A DNA stretch of 37,438 bases from Bacteroidales bacterium (GTDB taxonomy: Bacteria > Bacteroidota > Bacteroidia > Bacteroidales > UBA12077), in the NCBI GenBank assembly GCA_030668615.1, contig DAOUTQ010000013.1, positions 1-37,438 on the forward strand, given 5' to 3'. Position 1 is the first letter of the stretch. Each line of letters starts with the position of its first letter. Below the pieces are notes generated by a model, which was not told the DNA's origin, did not search any database, and worked only from the letters and a program-made list of their open reading frames with translations. The translations under genes and the position numbers were made by a program. Positions 5,021 to 11,566 of this stretch are shown here, in pieces.

Positions 5021-6688
5021 TTATAATTTAATTATAGAATAAGAAATGTTTTTTTCTGAAGTTCTTAACTGTACATAATAAATACCTGTAGATAATTGTT
5101 CAAGGTTTATCTTATCACCAAGTCTGAAAATAGTATTTCCGCGGTTTATTGGAATACGCTGATAGTAAATTCTTTCTCCAGTTATCTTAAAAATATTTAT
5201 TTCAATATCTTGATCTATTGCTGAATAAAGGCTGATATTAAGTTGGTCATTAAAAGGATTTGGATAGATCTCTTCTTTAATACTTGTTGGATTTTCTCCC
5301 CGGTAGAGAACAAAATTGGCATATGCAACACTTTTAGAACTTACAACAATATTTTTTGCAGTATCATTTTTAAAACCATCTGCTGAAGCTATTAGGTCGT
5401 ATGTTCCTGGTTCAATTAACCTATGATAATCTCCAATATCCGGATCTGTAAAAACCATAGAACTATCATCTGTTGCATCATGATTTTTAACAAAAATCAT
5501 TGCTTTTAAAGGATTCCCAATAGAGTCGGTAACAATACCTTTTATACCATATAGACTCTCATTAATAAAGTTAAAAAATGAGTGTTTATTGTAATTCCAA
5601 TAATTAGGAAGCGATGTTTCTGCAACATGCTTAATGTCAGATAGTTCAATTGTAATCTCTCGTGAGTTATGAAAATAAGTAAAATAGTCTTGTCTACCTC
5701 CTGCAATTGTATACCAGTCATATCCATTTGTAATTCCATTTTGCAAATAGGTTAAATAACCGGAAGGAGAGTTGGCCTGTGCGAGGTCTGCATAATCTCT
5801 CGAAATACTAATAAACCAGTCATTGTCAGTATGCCTTCTGTACCATGTATCCCATGGATAATTTATCACTTCAACACCACCATGAAAGTTTGCTGAAAGT
5901 ACAAAGTTGTGATTTTTGGCAAATTCCATCATGGCTACTGTTTCTGGTTGCCATGCATTTCCATCTGGATGGTTCCCGTCTTCAGGATCTGGAAAGTTTC
6001 TGTTTAAATCAATACCATTAGCATTAAATCTTTGCGGGCTTTCTATAGTACTATTATCATTCTCATATGTTCCATCAGGATTTGCATTTGGATTAATATA
6101 AATATCAGTTTCATTAATTAGTGATGAAATATCTTCGTTTAATTCATAATTTGTTACAAGAGAATCGATTAACCTTAGCATTAAAATAAATCCAAGTGTC
6201 TCGTCACCATGCATGGTACTTGACAAGAAAATTTCAGGTTCATTTTCTTCCACATTAATATTATCAGAAATTTTTAGTACTAATAAATCTCTACCCAAAA
6301 CAGTAGTTCCGATATTTAATAATTTACATATTTCCGGATATGTATCAGCATAATTCTCCATCATTTCAACATACAGATCATAAGTAGGATATTTATTCCA
6401 GTCTTGCATTTCTGCAATTGTTGTTACAGCAGCAGATTTTTGAGATTTGATAGTATTGTTTAGAAGAATATAATTATATCCAAACGATACGAATTTCTGA
6501 AAATTACTTTCTGTTGCAAAAGCATATACAGTATTATCTTTTACATTATCAATGGAAATTATTGTAGTAAGCTTTTCAATTTCAGATTTATCTGTAATAT
6601 CAAATTTGAAATAATATTCTTTATGATTTTGTGAAAAGATTATTTTAAAAATAAATAGAAATAGAACTAAGAGTTGTGTTTTTTTCAT
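5021..6688 (-). CDS. Secreted M14 zinc carboxypeptidase with T9SS sorting domain
   Basis: This 555-residue protein has a signal peptide (1-19, IIFS-Q) and an M14 carboxypeptidase domain (about 97-365). Zinc ligands are H160 and E163 (MHGDET) and H269 (NFHGG). The substrate-binding arginine is R230 (DLNRNFP) and the catalytic glutamate is E348 (ITIELSD). A carboxypeptidase-regulatory-like beta domain (about 382-460) follows, then a T9SS type A sorting domain from about 470 with YPNPFNDQLNISL. It should be exported to the cell surface or medium and trim C-terminal residues from peptides. The regulatory domain suggests the carboxypeptidase D/N branch. It sits downstream of the papain-like gene but a terminator and its own promoter box separate them. 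Confidence 0.9.
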   Translation of the reverse strand: MKKTQLLVLFLFIFKIIFSQNHKEYYFKFDITDKSEIEKLTTIISIDNVKDNTVYAFATESNFQKFVSFGYNYILLNNTIKSQKSAAVTTIAEMQDWNKYPTYDLYVEMMENYADTYPEICKLLNIGTTVLGRDLLVLKISDNINVEENEPEIFLSSTMHGDETLGFILMLRLIDSLVTNYELNEDISSLINETDIYINPNANPDGTYENDNSTIESPQRFNANGIDLNRNFPDPEDGNHPDGNAWQPETVAMMEFAKNHNFVLSANFHGGVEVINYPWDTWYRRHTDNDWFISISRDYADLAQANSPSGYLTYLQNGITNGYDWYTIAGGRQDYFTYFHNSREITIELSDIKHVAETSLPNYWNYNKHSFFNFINESLYGIKGIVTDSIGNPLKAMIFVKNHDATDDSSMVFTDPDIGDYHRLIEPGTYDLIASADGFKNDTAKNIVVSSKSVAYANFVLYRGENPTSIKEEIYPNPFNDQLNISLYSAIDQDIEINIFKITGERIYYQRIPINRGNTIFRLGDKINLEQLSTGIYYVQLRTSEKNISYSIIKL

Positions 6689-6714: not shown

Positions 6715-6722
6715 CAAATTTA
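6715..6722 (-). promoter_or_regulatory. Candidate -7 box for the M14 carboxypeptidase gene
   Basis: On the minus strand this reads TAAATTTG, an exact TAnnTTTG match about 26 bp before the ATG. A TTTC sequence 20 bp further upstream could serve as a weak -33 element; it lies in the loop of the upstream terminator hairpin. The promoter therefore overlaps the end of the papain-like transcription unit. Confidence 0.4.
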
Positions 6723-6728
6723 CAAAAT

Positions 6729-6758
6729 AAAAAAGGGCATCCGAAAGATACCCTTTTT
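6729..6758 (-). terminator. Terminator of the papain-like protease gene
   Basis: An 11-bp stem (6731-6741 with 6747-6757, one G-T pair) closes a 5-nt loop. On the minus strand a run of T residues follows. It lies about 20 bp beyond the stop of the C1A protease gene. Confidence 0.8.
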
Positions 6759-6779: not shown

Positions 6780-9338
6780 TTATTTAATAATTACTGGAAG
6801 CGAATATTGATTATTTATTGTAGTAACTCTTACAATATATAATCCACTTTTGTTAAGTGAAAAATCATATTCGTTCTGGTCTATAACTCCTTTTCTGCTG
6901 AAAATAATAGAACCGTCTACAGAAAGTACATCTATATTTGTTCTATCATTAATATTATTAATTGAAGATAAATCTAATTTAAATTCACCATTTGATGGGT
7001 TCGGATAAACTTTAATTAAATCATTTTTGTTTAGTTCATCATTAACTCCTAATGGCCATGCTTCACTAATTAAAATTGTAGCTTCACCTTCAGCTCCAAC
7101 AGCGCTTCCATCCATTTGTAACCAATAAGTTTTTCCTTCGGTTAAAGCACTAGTAGCATTTATTGTAGCTGAGTAATCTTCATCAACATGATCATCGTTC
7201 GCCCCAACAAGTGTATATTTACTATCATCTCCACCAACAATATCAGCACAAGATTCAGCATCATAAACTGCAATTTGGTTATCAAAACCATCAGTTTCTA
7301 TTTTTACAGCTTTAGTTGAAGGCGCAACAAATTTAAACCACACACTATTTTGTAATCCACCTTCATCACACCATTGCATTGTTCCTTCACAACCTGTAAG
7401 AGGAGGAAATGGTTCATTTGTTTCAACAGTTGCTTCAACATTAGTATAAGGTCCTGATTCAACACTTAAAGGAATTTCAATTGCATCACATACATCATCA
7501 TTATCTGGGGAAAATACGATAGTAATTCTTACTGAATCCTCTGCTGTACAAGTTCCCATTGTACCTACTACATAATAAGTAGTATCAGTAGATCGAGTAA
7601 CAGTAATCATCGATTCTGTATTACTTCCAGTGATTTCTGAAGATGGTTGCCATACATATGAGTCAGCACCAAATGCATATAAGTTAATGGTTGCACCCTG
7701 ACTAATAAATACAGTGTCTTCAGGAATAACAACGTCAATTGTATTGCTAACTTTTATATAATCATATAATATAAGTGAATCTTTTGTACTTGATCCGTTT
7801 TCAATAACTAATTTTATTGTTTTAATTCCATCACTTGAGTATGAAACTACTTGTGGCCCTTCTCCTGTAGCAGTTGCTGGAGTAGCATCAGCACCGAAAT
7901 CCCATGTATAATTTGTTATTGTACCGATAGAATTGCTTGTAAATGTAACATTACTATTAGGACAAACAGTATTACGGTCAGAAGAAAAGGAAGCTTGCAA
8001 GTCGCTTGTTGTACCATAAGCTCTAATACAAAGATCTACTTCACTAGTAGTACCATCTCCTATTGCATTCCATTCATCACCTTCATCACTTATCCAGCAA
8101 ACACCAGATTCAATGTCTGCAAGTGAATAACCAGCATAATACATTTCTACAGGTATTGGATAATCGTCTCCAGGAGTATAGTATCCAATTTTAATATAAA
8201 AATCTCCATTTACTTCAAATGGAATATCGAAAGTATAATAACCAGGATGCTCTGCTAACATGTTATATTTTTTTGCAAGTGTATCTTCAAGTAAATCACC
8301 ATTTTTAGTTTGAAATACTTCTATGTCAATTATTGAATTTGAAGCGCCAATAAATGTACCTACTTTAGTAAAATTATGAGTTTCTGAAACATTATATTTA
8401 ATTAAAGCATAATCATTTTGATCACGATATCCATATGAAGTTATTTCACCAAAATCATCTATCATTAATATTTCATCAATATTATTTAATTCTTTTCTTA
8501 TAGGATATATTGTAGGGTTATTTATTGCATATGTATCATTATATGACATGTAGAAATATCCGTTATCTCCCCAGCTGCTTCCCCAGCTATTTTTTATTAT
8601 CCATGCTCCGGTTCCTCCAGCAGTTGATTTAGTATCATCCCAACCTACTAATAATACACCGTGATTTACAGATTCTGTACCATCATAATAATAGGTATCC
8701 TCTGCAGTATATAATCCACCTATTGTGTAGTATGAAACTGCCATAGCACCATAATTCATTAAATAATATTTAACAACATCAGGATCGGAAGGTAAAAATC
8801 TGGATTCAGGAACATAAAATTGTGGATCAATTCCAGTTGCTGAACATGAGAATTCATAATCCAAATATACATCTTCTGTTTCCAAAAGTGGGCCTTGTAA
8901 TCTGGATAGATATGCAGTTGCTATACCCTGATTTCCTCCCTCTTCCCACTCAAAACCATGGCATGTAGCCATATTATGTTCAGATAAATCTTCTTCAGCA
9001 AATCCTAACATCATAATTCTTGATTCAAGCGCACCAGTTGCTGCAAAACTCCAGCAATGACCCGCACCATACTGATTTTTAACAGGACTAACAAATCCCT
9101 CAGTATTTAAGTTGAATATAGATGGAAAACCTGGTTTTGCATCCGGTACTTTCTCACTTACTTTATCTGAAAATACATAAGTAGTAGGAGCCGGGATTAT
9201 TCCTGTAACATCTCTTTTTGCTCCTGATTCAATGAATTTTTTAAACTCTTCGTTTACTGGAGCTTGTTCCGGTTTCTGAGCCAAAATACTTCCTGAAAAT
9301 AAAAGTAGTATTATGGCGGTTGTAAAATTTAATTTCAT
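6780..9338 (-). CDS. Secreted papain-like (C1A) cysteine protease with PKD and T9SS domains
   Basis: This 852-residue protein has a signal peptide (1-20, ILA-Q) and a short propeptide-like stretch. The C1A peptidase domain spans about 75-275: oxyanion Q89, nucleophile C95 (GAGHCWSFAA), H226 (VNHGVLLVGWDD) and N250 (IKNSWGSSWGDNGYF) form the complete papain active site. A beta-rich region (about 285-440) follows, then a PKD domain (about 442-525, YTWDFGADATPA), a further beta domain (about 625-765), and a T9SS type A sorting domain near the end (YPNPSNGEFKLDLS). It should be an active surface or secreted endopeptidase. A serpin gene lies 41 bp upstream on the same strand, so enzyme and possible inhibitor are probably co-transcribed. 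Confidence 0.92.
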   Translation of the reverse strand: MKLNFTTAIILLLFSGSILAQKPEQAPVNEEFKKFIESGAKRDVTGIIPAPTTYVFSDKVSEKVPDAKPGFPSIFNLNTEGFVSPVKNQYGAGHCWSFAATGALESRIMMLGFAEEDLSEHNMATCHGFEWEEGGNQGIATAYLSRLQGPLLETEDVYLDYEFSCSATGIDPQFYVPESRFLPSDPDVVKYYLMNYGAMAVSYYTIGGLYTAEDTYYYDGTESVNHGVLLVGWDDTKSTAGGTGAWIIKNSWGSSWGDNGYFYMSYNDTYAINNPTIYPIRKELNNIDEILMIDDFGEITSYGYRDQNDYALIKYNVSETHNFTKVGTFIGASNSIIDIEVFQTKNGDLLEDTLAKKYNMLAEHPGYYTFDIPFEVNGDFYIKIGYYTPGDDYPIPVEMYYAGYSLADIESGVCWISDEGDEWNAIGDGTTSEVDLCIRAYGTTSDLQASFSSDRNTVCPNSNVTFTSNSIGTITNYTWDFGADATPATATGEGPQVVSYSSDGIKTIKLVIENGSSTKDSLILYDYIKVSNTIDVVIPEDTVFISQGATINLYAFGADSYVWQPSSEITGSNTESMITVTRSTDTTYYVVGTMGTCTAEDSVRITIVFSPDNDDVCDAIEIPLSVESGPYTNVEATVETNEPFPPLTGCEGTMQWCDEGGLQNSVWFKFVAPSTKAVKIETDGFDNQIAVYDAESCADIVGGDDSKYTLVGANDDHVDEDYSATINATSALTEGKTYWLQMDGSAVGAEGEATILISEAWPLGVNDELNKNDLIKVYPNPSNGEFKLDLSSINNINDRTNIDVLSVDGSIIFSRKGVIDQNEYDFSLNKSGLYIVRVTTINNQYSLPVIIK

Positions 9339-9379
9339 TTTTGATTTTTTTATGGTTATTAAATTTAGATTCTTATTAT

Positions 9380-10558
9380 TTATAAATTTGGATTTAATAC
9401 TTTTCCAATAAAATAAATTGTATTTGTTTTTTGATTCCTAATCATGTAAATAAATGGACGATTAGTATTAAATTGTACTTCATCAACGTTTATTGAGGTT
9501 TTTCTCATGAAAATAGCTGTAGCAGCAGAAGCTTCAGTACCTTCTTCATCTACTTCAATATTCGCTTTATGAATAACTTTACTTATATATAATTTTTCAT
9601 TTTCAGTGATACCAGAAAAATCTGCACTCATTGTAAAAGCTTCTTTTATTCCTAATTGTTTTAGTGATGCATTCAGATCAAATTCCGATTCAATATTGTA
9701 TTTAGGAAATGATAATTGAATCTGTTTCTTTGTTTTCTTTTCAATGTAATTTAAATAGTAATCGTAATTAAGTTTTTTTTCAACCTTCTTTAATTTCTTA
9801 TACGATTTTGGTAATATAACTAAAAGGGATAATTGTTCATTTGAATAGGGAATATCAATTATTTCACAATATTTATCTTCGTAATACCATGAAGAAAATG
9901 AATTATTCATAAAAGCAGTTTTTATACTTTCCTTTTTACCAATCTTAAAATCATCATTTGTATTATTTTCTTTTTTGAACTTTGTTAACCATGCTCCTTT
10001 AAAATATAGTGCATTTACAAGTACAAGTCTGGTTGCATTATCAATTGCAGAAGGTTTTATAAGATCTTTAATTTTATTATTTGTATTTTTTCCTACCCAT
10101 TCATTAATTGTAGTTCTGGATTTTTCCGGATTTGAGATAAAATCAGTAAAGTTTGCTGATGATGAATAGTATTTTTTGTTGTTTTCAAGAAATTCTGTAT
10201 TAAGTTTTAATCCTTTTTGAATCCACAATGAATTTGCGTTAAATAGTCTTACTGTACTCTTTTTATCAGAATAACTTTCAACAAGTTTATCATAGCTCTT
10301 GTTAAATTCTGATATATTTTTATTAAAATAAAAAGTATTAGAGATCTCATTAAAAGTATTGCTTTTTGCTCCTGTATATGTCATTGCTATAGCAGAAGTG
10401 ATACTGGCCGGAGAAAAAATAAGGTTTTTATCTGTTTTGCTTAATAATTTATATATATCGAATGTAAAACGATTATTACTTTCAATAATATCTTGTGCCT
10501 GAGTAGTAAATAATATACTTGATGCAAGTGCTACTAAAAATACTTTCTTCATCATCAT
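9380..10558 (-). CDS. Serpin-family protease inhibitor
   Basis: This 392-residue protein has a signal peptide (about 1-22) and otherwise matches the length of a complete serpin domain. Family landmarks include NLIFSPASI (45-53), LVNALYFKGAW (180-190), FPKYNIESEFDL and the closing RPFIYMIR/YFIGKVLNP. The reactive-centre hinge is EEGTEASAAT (338-347), rich in small residues as in inhibitory serpins. Counting from G340 as P15 places P1 at T354 and P1' at S355, with R352-K353 just before. The protein lacks a T9SS tail and a lipobox, so it would be periplasmic or released. It is the first gene of a likely operon with the papain-like protease. Three consecutive ATGs make the exact start uncertain by two codons. 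Confidence 0.93.
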   Translation of the reverse strand: MMMKKVFLVALASSILFTTQAQDIIESNNRFTFDIYKLLSKTDKNLIFSPASITSAIAMTYTGAKSNTFNEISNTFYFNKNISEFNKSYDKLVESYSDKKSTVRLFNANSLWIQKGLKLNTEFLENNKKYYSSSANFTDFISNPEKSRTTINEWVGKNTNNKIKDLIKPSAIDNATRLVLVNALYFKGAWLTKFKKENNTNDDFKIGKKESIKTAFMNNSFSSWYYEDKYCEIIDIPYSNEQLSLLVILPKSYKKLKKVEKKLNYDYYLNYIEKKTKKQIQLSFPKYNIESEFDLNASLKQLGIKEAFTMSADFSGITENEKLYISKVIHKANIEVDEEGTEASAATAIFMRKTSINVDEVQFNTNRPFIYMIRNQKTNTIYFIGKVLNPNL

Positions 10559-10579: not shown

Positions 10580-10587
10580 CAAATATA
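10580..10587 (-). promoter_or_regulatory. Candidate -7 box for the serpin-protease operon
   Basis: The minus strand reads TATATTTG, an exact TAnnTTTG match 21 bp before the first serpin ATG. A TTTA at 10609-10612 could be a weak -33 element. This would give a short leader and a single promoter for the serpin and the downstream protease. Confidence 0.45.
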
Positions 10588-10762: not shown

Positions 10763-11566
10763 ATGAAAAAGATTGTTTTCAGTATTATAGTATTATTATT
10801 GTTTGGCTTTAATGTTTCAGGACAAAGTATTTCATCTTCAGTAGTTTCAACTGCAGGTAACTCTGTTGAAGCCGGAGGAATAGAAATTTCGTGGACACTA
10901 GGAGATTTGGTTATAGAAACAAGGGAGGCAGGATCTCTTATTGTTACACAAGGATTTCAACAAGCATTTATTAACACGGATAATAATGCACCAACAGATA
11001 TATCTCTTTCTGAATCAAGCATTGAAGAAAACTTATCTGCATCTACAGTAATTGGAGATTTTTCTTCAACTGATATTGACGATGGAGATACTCATACTTA
11101 TAGTTTAGTTGCAGGAAATGGAACTAATGATGCAGATAACAGTAGCTTTAGTATAGATGGAGACCAATTAAAATCAGCTGTGTCATTTGATTTTGAAACC
11201 CAAAGCGAATTTCATATTTATGTTCGAACGACTGATTTAGGAGATGCTTATTTTGAAAAAACATTTCAGATAGATATTATTGATGTTGAAGAAACAGGCA
11301 TAAATGATATGAATAAATCGGATATAAAAGTATATCCAAATCCATCAAGTGAATTTATACGAGTTAATTTTGCGGCAAATGTACAAAAGGACTTGGTTAT
11401 TGAACTATATGATCTTGAAGGAAAACTTATCAGAAATTTAATTAGAAAGAAAGCCGAAGAAGAAATTCTAATACCTGTGAGTGATTTAAGCGCATCACAG
11501 TATATATTAAAAATATATGATTCATCAGGAATAGAGGTTCAAACATTCAAGCTTATAAAACGTTAA
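10763..11566 (+). CDS. Secreted cadherin-domain protein with T9SS sorting domain
   Basis: This 267-residue protein has a signal peptide (1-20, NVSG-Q). A short N-terminal beta region follows (about 21-70, with the VEAGGIEISWTLGDL stretch often seen in Bacteroidota T9SS proteins). A cadherin-like domain covers about 76-172, with NAPTDISLS, DIDDGDTHTY and FDFETQ calcium-site-like segments. The T9SS type A tail begins near residue 188 (VYPNPSSEFIRVNF). No enzymatic domain is visible. It is probably a surface-attached adhesion or scaffold protein, but the specific role cannot be read from sequence. It is divergent from the serpin operon, separated by 204 bp. Confidence 0.8.
   Translation: MKKIVFSIIVLLLFGFNVSGQSISSSVVSTAGNSVEAGGIEISWTLGDLVIETREAGSLIVTQGFQQAFINTDNNAPTDISLSESSIEENLSASTVIGDFSSTDIDDGDTHTYSLVAGNGTNDADNSSFSIDGDQLKSAVSFDFETQSEFHIYVRTTDLGDAYFEKTFQIDIIDVEETGINDMNKSDIKVYPNPSSEFIRVNFAANVQKDLVIELYDLEGKLIRNLIRKKAEEEILIPVSDLSASQYILKIYDSSGIEVQTFKLIKR

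What the first reader, a model, noticed from the sequence alone, without database searches (positions are those of the whole stretch)
6780..10558. Serpin and papain-like protease encoded in one apparent operon
A secreted serpin gene (9380-10558) precedes, by 41 bp on the same strand, a complete papain-like protease with a T9SS tail. A single good promoter box lies before the serpin and a terminator after the protease. The serpin hinge (EEGTEASAAT) is of the inhibitory type. Serpins usually inhibit serine proteases, but some, including miropin of Tannerella, inhibit cysteine proteases. The layout recalls staphopain-staphostatin operons, where a cysteine protease and its dedicated inhibitor are co-expressed. 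I infer that the serpin protects the periplasm or cell surface from its partner protease, as a serpin-based analogue of that system.
Basis: partly seen in the sequence, partly recalled or inferred. Interest (0 to 1): 0.72.

Follow-up and report, generated by a model that had tools for sequence, protein, structure and literature searches.

The report
Serpin leading a swappable-protease gene locus
A Bacteroidales bacterium carries a protease-inhibitor (serpin) gene directly in front of a secreted papain-like protease gene; relatives keep the same inhibitor, with nearly the same bait loop, while the protease behind it is of the papain type, of the streptopain type, or missing, so the inhibitor is probably a general bodyguard rather than the private partner of this one protease.

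Summary
In detail: serpin 9380-10558(-) lies 41 bp before a T9SS-tailed papain-like (C1A) protease 6780-9338(-), and a strong hairpin follows. In the genus, all 6 genomes with an ortholog of this C1A have it directly behind this serpin, so the pair is conserved. But the slot behind the serpin holds C1A in 6, a C10 (streptopain-type) cysteine protease in 3, and neither in 7 of 16 readable genomes, where an M14 carboxypeptidase follows at once. Loop motif MRKT is kept in 15 of 16, across all three states. The nearest relative (serpin 88% identical; genome 91% complete) lacks the C1A gene, yet its serpin is under like constraint (pair dN/dS 0.10, equal branch lengths). A serpin dedicated to this C1A should not behave so. 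Best reading: a serpin-led locus of secreted peptidases with an exchangeable cysteine-protease slot; the serpin has one conserved specificity and probably guards the periplasm, perhaps against either cysteine protease. Closest known layouts are potempin-KLIKK and Bfp-Bfi operons. Inhibition, location and shared transcription are untested.

The parts
9380..10558 (-). Serpin, 392 aa, Sec-like signal peptide (by eye), no lipobox pattern, no T9SS tail match
9494..9547 (-). Serpin reactive loop from P17 (E338) to P1' (S355, 17-residue count recalled); MRKT = residues 351-354, 9497-9508
   Evidence: MRKT kept in 15 of 16 genus serpins
10580..10587 (-). TATATTTG, promoter-like -7 box (consensus recalled; weak)
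6780..9338 (-). C1A papain-like protease, 852 aa: catalytic domain, Lectin_like, PKD, T9SS tail; signal by eye
8502..9125 (-). Peptidase_C1 catalytic domain with Q89, C95, H226, N250
8016..8462 (-). Lectin_like domain
6801..7010 (-). T9SS type A C-terminal sorting domain (residues 777-846)
9339..9379 (-). 41-bp serpin-C1A gap, no TAnnTTTG box
6730..6758 (-). Terminator-like hairpin, 13 pairs, T-run; a like element follows the serpin directly in G314
6715..6722 (-). TAAATTTG, promoter-like -7 box before the M14 gene
5021..6688 (-). M14 zinc carboxypeptidase with T9SS tail, the most constant downstream gene of the locus

Best explanation
A serpin-led locus of secreted peptidases with an exchangeable cysteine-endopeptidase slot. 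The first gene makes a serpin that stays in the periplasm (or is shed), because it has a Sec-like signal but no T9SS tail. The next gene, when present, makes a cysteine endopeptidase (C1A or C10) that crosses the periplasm and is put on the surface by T9SS; the last makes a surface carboxypeptidase (M14) that would trim the new ends. The serpin is a suicide inhibitor of one fixed specificity (loop MRKT) that protects the cell from proteases of its own and possibly of others; it is not tuned to, and does not depend on, the C1A protease of this window. Shown: gene order, domains, conservation, different genes in the middle slot, constant loop, purifying selection in the pair of which one lacks the C1A gene. 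Inferred: shared transcript, periplasmic location, inhibition, and which protease is the target.
For: Locus-1 serpin in 18 of 20 genus genomes, own included (G301 no serpin match, G304 only a 35% paralog). Next gene readable in 16: C1A 6, C10 3, M14 directly 7. M14 seen in 13 of 14 loci whose contig runs on past the slot. MRKT in 15 of 16 readable loops (C1A 5 of 6, C10 3 of 3, none 7 of 7; G309 has MNKT). MRKT columns are 97% identical pairwise against 55% for the rest of the protein (15 rows), while in 116 order-level rows the same columns are 21% against 36%. On the best serpin tree the three slot states need 7 changes; well-supported branches alone force 3 to 4 per state, and C1A and C10 are no more clustered than shuffled labels. 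G306 (C10) and G312 (C1A): serpins 92%, M14 91%, identical loop. G000 and G314: C1A present or absent, serpin pair dN/dS 0.10, branch lengths 0.058 and 0.059. G314's 92-bp serpin-M14 gap matches the window's C1A-M14 gap with its hairpin (score 30 against 11.5 shuffled, reached by 0 of 1000) and not the serpin-C1A gap (reached by 476 of 1000).
Against: A constant loop cannot show that the cysteine proteases are targets at all. C10 relatives of the slot gene (52-68% identical) also lie without a serpin beside them in 4 genus genomes (G309, G097, G305, G300), and 4 of 5 sister-genus genomes keep a 36-42% C1A homolog away from their serpins, so the association is not obligatory. The three slot C10 proteins carry their own Spi-like propeptide inhibitor, so may need no serpin. 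All of this is one inherited locus, not many independent ones, and outside the family such neighbours are rare (2 of 147). Several genomes are incomplete; G314 is 91% complete with 8% contamination.
Confidence: 0.5

Rival explanations
1. One reading: the serpin is the dedicated inhibitor of the adjacent C1A protease, a serpin-based analogue of staphopain-staphostatin.
For: In 6 of 6 genus genomes with the C1A ortholog it lies directly behind the serpin; C1A and serpin diverge to like degrees (for example G000-G313 61 and 63%, G309-G312 64 and 65%); no I29-type inhibitory propeptide was matched in the C1A, so an outside inhibitor could be useful; miropin inhibits gingipain K and a calpain-like peptidase (PMC8201313, passages).
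Against: Serpin kept with the same MRKT where the C1A gene is absent (7 of 16) or replaced by C10 (3 of 16), with no sign of relaxed constraint in G314; 3 of 5 sister-genus serpins have MRKT with no C1A, C10 or M14 gene in the stretches of 6-11 kb read around the five.
Confidence: 0.15
2. The serpin targets a trypsin-like or Lys/Arg-specific serine protease from outside or elsewhere in the cell, and shares the locus with the proteases only because all belong to one secreted-proteolysis programme.
For: Loop with R and K near the scissile region, kept irrespective of the neighbour; M14, the most constant neighbour (13 of 14 loci), is a metallopeptidase that serpins cannot trap (recalled); 145 of 147 order-level serpin genes have no C1A or C10 neighbour and none an M14 neighbour.
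Against: The gene in the slot is a cysteine protease in all 9 filled cases, of two families, which a mere neighbourhood effect would not predict.
Confidence: 0.3
3. The gene order is chance or passenger linkage without function.
For: Outside the family only 2 of 147 order-level serpin genes have a C10 neighbour and none a C1A neighbour; C1A and C10 homologs also live away from serpins in the family.
Against: Order, strand and short gaps (25-43 bp) are kept in 9 genomes down to about 46% serpin identity while the middle gene differs.
Confidence: 0.05

Closest known systems
Potempin-KLIKK protease operons of Tannerella forsythia (PMC7296668, passages)
   Same: Inhibitor gene directly precedes a secreted protease gene in a Bacteroidales; the passages report inhibitory activity specific to the co-expressed protease (as unpublished data)
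   Different: Potempins are small lipoproteins specific to the protease behind them; here the inhibitor is a 392-aa serpin with one loop motif for differing proteases; the protease does not end in KLIKK
Bfp-Bfi C10 protease and staphostatin-like inhibitor pairs of Bacteroides fragilis (PMC2873492, passages)
   Same: Cysteine protease plus adjacent exported inhibitor, co-transcribed there, envelope protection proposed
   Different: Small (116-138 aa) staphostatin-like inhibitors, predicted lipoprotein proteases, no serpin
Staphopain-staphostatin and SpeB-Spi (PMC2873492 and PMC7863939, passages)
   Same: Secreted cysteine protease with a juxtaposed inhibitor gene
   Different: Other inhibitor folds, Gram-positive bacteria, inhibitor specific to its protease
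Miropin (PMC8201313, PMC7296668, passages)
   Same: Bacteroidales serpin of broad, cross-class inhibition; loop identical among T. forsythia strains
   Different: No protease partner gene is mentioned in the passages seen; its loop was not compared here
Cross-class serpins against papain-like enzymes, SCCA1 and others (PMC7863939, passages)
   Same: Precedent that serpins inhibit papain-like cysteine proteases
   Different: Eukaryotic; gene pairing with the target not mentioned in the passages seen

Membership tests
Serpin superfamily (MEROPS I4, inhibitory type) | Whole serpin fold by sequence | tested here: met
   PF00079 positions 1-370 of 370, E 1.1e-112; conserpin 1.4e-81
Serpin superfamily (MEROPS I4, inhibitory type) | Inhibitory hinge P17-P8 with small residues | tested here: met
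   EEGTEASAAT
Serpin superfamily (MEROPS I4, inhibitory type) | Covalent trapping of a protease | not testable with these tools
   needs purified proteins
Papain family C1A | Peptidase_C1 domain with Gln, Cys, His, Asn | tested here: met
Papain family C1A | Proteolytic activity | not testable with these tools
   needs purified protein
T9SS cargo | Type A C-terminal sorting domain | tested here: met
   PF18962 2.2e-8, TIGR04183 3.6e-8
T9SS cargo | N-terminal Sec signal | not tested
   seen by eye only, no predictor at hand
Staphopain-staphostatin system | Inhibitor of the staphostatin family (I57, beta-barrel) | tested here: not met
   inhibitor is a serpin
Staphopain-staphostatin system | One inhibitor specific to one protease | tested here: inconclusive
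   genomic pattern argues against it; no assay
Potempin-KLIKK operon | Inhibitor gene directly before the T9SS protease gene | tested here: met
   41-bp gap, same strand
Potempin-KLIKK operon | Inhibitor is a small lipoprotein | tested here: not met
   392-aa serpin; no lipobox pattern in 16 of 17 genus N-termini read, the window's among them, one ambiguous (G303 LLSC)
Potempin-KLIKK operon | Protease ends in KLIKK | tested here: not met
   C1A ends SLPVIIK
Potempin-KLIKK operon | Co-transcription | not testable with these tools
   only gap, box and hairpin seen
Bfp-Bfi pair | Staphostatin-like inhibitor beside a C10 protease | tested here: not met
   serpin beside C1A in the window; C10 only in 3 relatives

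The most novel reading that the evidence does not exclude
One cross-class serpin with a nearly frozen loop is a universal guard for interchangeable cysteine proteases of two families (C1A and C10): a constant immunity gene with a swappable effector behind it. If R352 is read as P1, M351 gives the hydrophobic P2 that both papain-like and streptopain-like enzymes favour (preference and register recalled, not tested), so one loop could serve both, which would explain why the protease can differ with no change in the serpin.
Probability: 0.22. Interest if true: 0.72.

Novelty: new variant of a known kind. Interest (0 to 1): 0.48.

Why it matters
[quoted passage not shown] Here natural replicates, the same serpin with a C1A protease, a C10 protease or neither behind it, make the question testable: does the serpin trap its neighbours, both kinds of them, or something else? 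If it traps both, it would be the first case known to me of a serpin serving as the self-protection gene of an exchangeable secreted-protease slot; if it traps neither, gene adjacency is a poor guide to serpin targets.

Tried and rejected
Dedicated-partner model: demoted, see above. Assembly artefact as the cause of the missing C1A gene in G314: unlikely, since the contig runs unbroken through the syntenic locus and the gap matches the window's C1A-M14 gap with its hairpin. A search of the G314/G316 genome found no ortholog, only a 32% match to another C1A, but that genome is 91% complete with 8% contamination. Loss in G314 or gain in G000 was not settled.

Artefact as the cause of the C10 swap: unlikely, three genomes with three different sequences. 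No M14 was seen behind C10 in G308 (contig end) or in G310 (2.2 kb read).

Two of the six C1A cases are imperfect: G311's gene is cut by a contig end; G307's lies on two overlapping contigs, the copy beside the serpin (C182) being broken by a stop and cut, and 95% identical over 724 aligned bases to the copy at the end of C285.

Clustering of the slot states: C1A (6 changes, shuffled mean 5.4) and C10 (3, mean 2.9) are not clustered on the serpin tree; 'none' is weakly so (4, mean 6.0, 30 of 500 shuffles as low). So simple vertical inheritance of the slot is not shown, although C1A and serpin identities run in parallel.

Wider survey: 149 serpin rows outside the family were read in the order (116, without the genus row L032; 33); two are the same genes seen twice (L031 and L119), giving 147. 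29 of the loci had at most 1.5 kb on each side, and 13 genes had one side unseen at a contig or stretch end. The order listing was cut by the tool, so the survey is not complete. My home-made profiles covered serpin, C1A, C10 and M14 only; Pfam was run on 10 neighbours, of which only the two C10 proteins were proteases. The 5 sister-genus serpins and 6 genus paralogs have no C1A, C10 or M14 gene in the stretch read. Further afield, 29 phylum-level serpin loci (1.5 kb flanks at most; one repeats an order locus, in one my gene caller missed the serpin) showed no C1A, C10 or M14 gene. Lectin_like proteins were found in 4 of 395 phylum genomes; the other three have no serpin match in the same sample.

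Loop count: a regular expression parsed 103 of 116 rows (13 dropped), 0 with MRKT; a plain search of the last 80 residues found MRKT in 0 of all 149 rows.

Literature: searches of the open-licence library showed, in the listings and in the passages that I read of eight papers, none that describes a serpin gene paired with a cysteine protease gene in bacteria. Most listed papers were not opened, and subscription journals, including the original miropin paper (not held), were not seen.

Not run: structure prediction, because the relatives came mostly from a source that tool does not take and a single-sequence model would not settle the target.
Full report
What is there. On the minus strand lie a serpin (9380-10558) and, after 41 bp, an 852-aa papain-like protease (6780-9338), then a hairpin with a T-run (6730-6758), then an M14 carboxypeptidase (5021-6688) with a promoter-like box of its own. 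The serpin matches the Pfam Serpin profile over its full length (E 1.1e-112), and the protease matches Peptidase_C1, Lectin_like, PKD and the T9SS sorting tail. The four papain active-site residues are present. The window is the whole of contig 220 of a genome that is 88% complete; its nearest named relative is a Bacteroidales MAG.

Conservation. Of 20 genomes of the genus, own included, 18 have a serpin at or like this locus. 13 of the 18 show at least one of the window's flanking genes beside it in the stretch read (a transporter-like gene on one side in 12, a cyclase-like gene on the other in 10; these two names are my own labels, not from a family search). G306, G310, G311, G313 and G315 show neither; G306, G311 and G315 carry other genes upstream. 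The gene after the serpin could be read in 16: a C1A protease in 6 (G000, G307, G309, G311, G312, G313), a C10 protease in 3 (G306, G308, G310) and M14 directly in 7 (G314, G302, G283, G303, G305, G198, G097); in G315 and G300 the contig ends inside the serpin. In all 6 genus genomes with an ortholog of this C1A (48-64% identical to the window's) it is behind the serpin, with the reservations on G311 and G307 told under Tried and rejected. M14 follows in 13 of the 14 loci whose contig runs on; the exception is G310, of which 2.2 kb were read. Of the nine slot proteins seven show their C-terminus; six of these have a T9SS tail (Pfam for the window, L070, L071 and L078; a tail motif for L075 and L080, none found by that pattern in L085).

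The slot differs while the serpin hardly does. G306 and G312 have serpins 92% identical and M14 proteins 91% identical, with an identical reactive loop, but one has C10 and the other C1A between them. The window and G314 have serpins 88% identical; G314 has no C1A gene there or, as far as its genome shows, elsewhere beyond a 32% relative. The 92 bp between serpin and M14 in G314 align with the window's C1A-M14 gap and its hairpin, and not with the serpin-C1A gap, so gene plus leader are present as a clean unit in one and absent in the other; the direction was not settled. On the best tree of the serpins the three slot states need 7 changes, with several forks unresolved; well-supported branches force 3 to 4 per state. 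C1A and serpin identities run in parallel where both exist. C10 relatives of the slot gene (52-68% identical) lie elsewhere, without a serpin beside them, in G309, G097, G305 and G300.

The loop. MRKT (residues 351-354) is kept in 15 of 16 readable loops, in all three states; the exception, MNKT, is in a C1A genome. Its columns are 97% identical pairwise, against 55% for the rest of the protein and 32% from P2' on (15 rows); in 116 order-level rows (two of them duplicates) the same columns are 21% identical against 36%. MRKT is absent from the last 80 residues of all 149 order-level rows. 3 of 5 serpins of the sister genus have it, with no C1A, C10 or M14 gene in the stretches of 6-11 kb read around the five. 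By the usual 17-residue count (recalled) P1 is T354; with a shift of one or two residues it is K353 or R352. Serpin dN/dS is 0.10 for the window against G314 and 0.12 for G306 against G312, and the two branches of the first pair have equal length (0.058 and 0.059), so there is no sign that lack of the C1A gene relaxed the serpin.

How it most likely works. The serpin has a Sec-like signal (by eye), no T9SS tail match and no lipobox, as in 16 of 17 genus N-termini read, so it should reside in the periplasm, through which T9SS cargo passes. A conserved loop at the head of a secreted-peptidase locus suggests a general guard with one specificity. Because the slot is filled with a cysteine endopeptidase in nine cases of two families, those enzymes are plausible targets; because the serpin is kept when they are absent, they cannot be its only reason to exist. 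M14 is a metallopeptidase and cannot be trapped by a serpin (recalled). Inhibition, location and co-transcription are all untested.

Outside the genus. Among 147 order-level serpin genes none lies beside a C1A gene and two beside a C10 gene: G073 (serpin, then C10 with CUB and T9SS domains, gap 177) and G105 (C10 first, overlapping the serpin by 4 bp). Their loops lack MRKT. C10 is common in the order (196 of 295 genomes), so chance is not excluded for two cases; the overlap in G105 is what an operon would look like.

Comparison with what is known. Potempin-KLIKK operons place an inhibitor directly before a T9SS protease in a Bacteroidales (PMC7296668, passages), and B. fragilis Bfp-Bfi pairs join C10 proteases to exported staphostatin-like inhibitors (PMC2873492, passages). 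The present locus resembles these in layout but fails defining features of both (inhibitor family and size, KLIKK end), so it is not a member of either. Miropin is a Bacteroidales serpin of broad, cross-class activity that includes gingipain K and a calpain-like peptidase (PMC8201313, passages), which shows that such a serpin can inhibit cysteine proteases. I saw no paper on a serpin-cysteine protease gene pair in bacteria in the nine searches named under Tried and rejected; that library is partial and most listed papers were not opened.

Verdict.

Noticed in passing
L289:3469-6149 (G105, order relative): C10 protease gene and serpin gene overlap by 4 bp on one strand, protease first; both begin like lipoproteins by eye. 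A separate serpin-C10 layout with a different loop.
   Followed up: partly
L168:4879-8775 (G073): Serpin followed after 177 bp by a C10 protease with CUB domains and T9SS tail.
   Followed up: partly
window 5021-6688 and relatives: The M14 tree splits G000, G314, G303 and G313 from the rest (G000 to the rest 47-55% identical), while the flanking-gene tree does not group G000 and G314 with G303, so the M14 gene may have been exchanged too.
   Followed up: no
G000:C117:28639-29022 and G000:C15:8-727 (L104, L103): Fragments of further serpin sequence at two contig ends, perhaps one gene; full-length paralogs in other genus genomes look lipoprotein-like by eye and have another loop.
   Followed up: partly
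L096:4893-10364, L097:2062-7929 (sister genus): Proteins of 1823 and 1955 aa with a stretch 34-37% identical to the C1A protease.
   Followed up: no
L304:3722-7465: Three serpin genes in tandem, 4 and 35 bp apart.
   Followed up: no
L079:1-760: C1A copy beside the serpin in G307 is broken; a 95% identical, longer copy sits on another contig, so strain mixture or assembly error is likely.
   Followed up: partly
window 10763-11566: Cadherin-like T9SS-tailed protein divergent from the serpin; a fast-changing upstream neighbour in many genus genomes.
   Followed up: no
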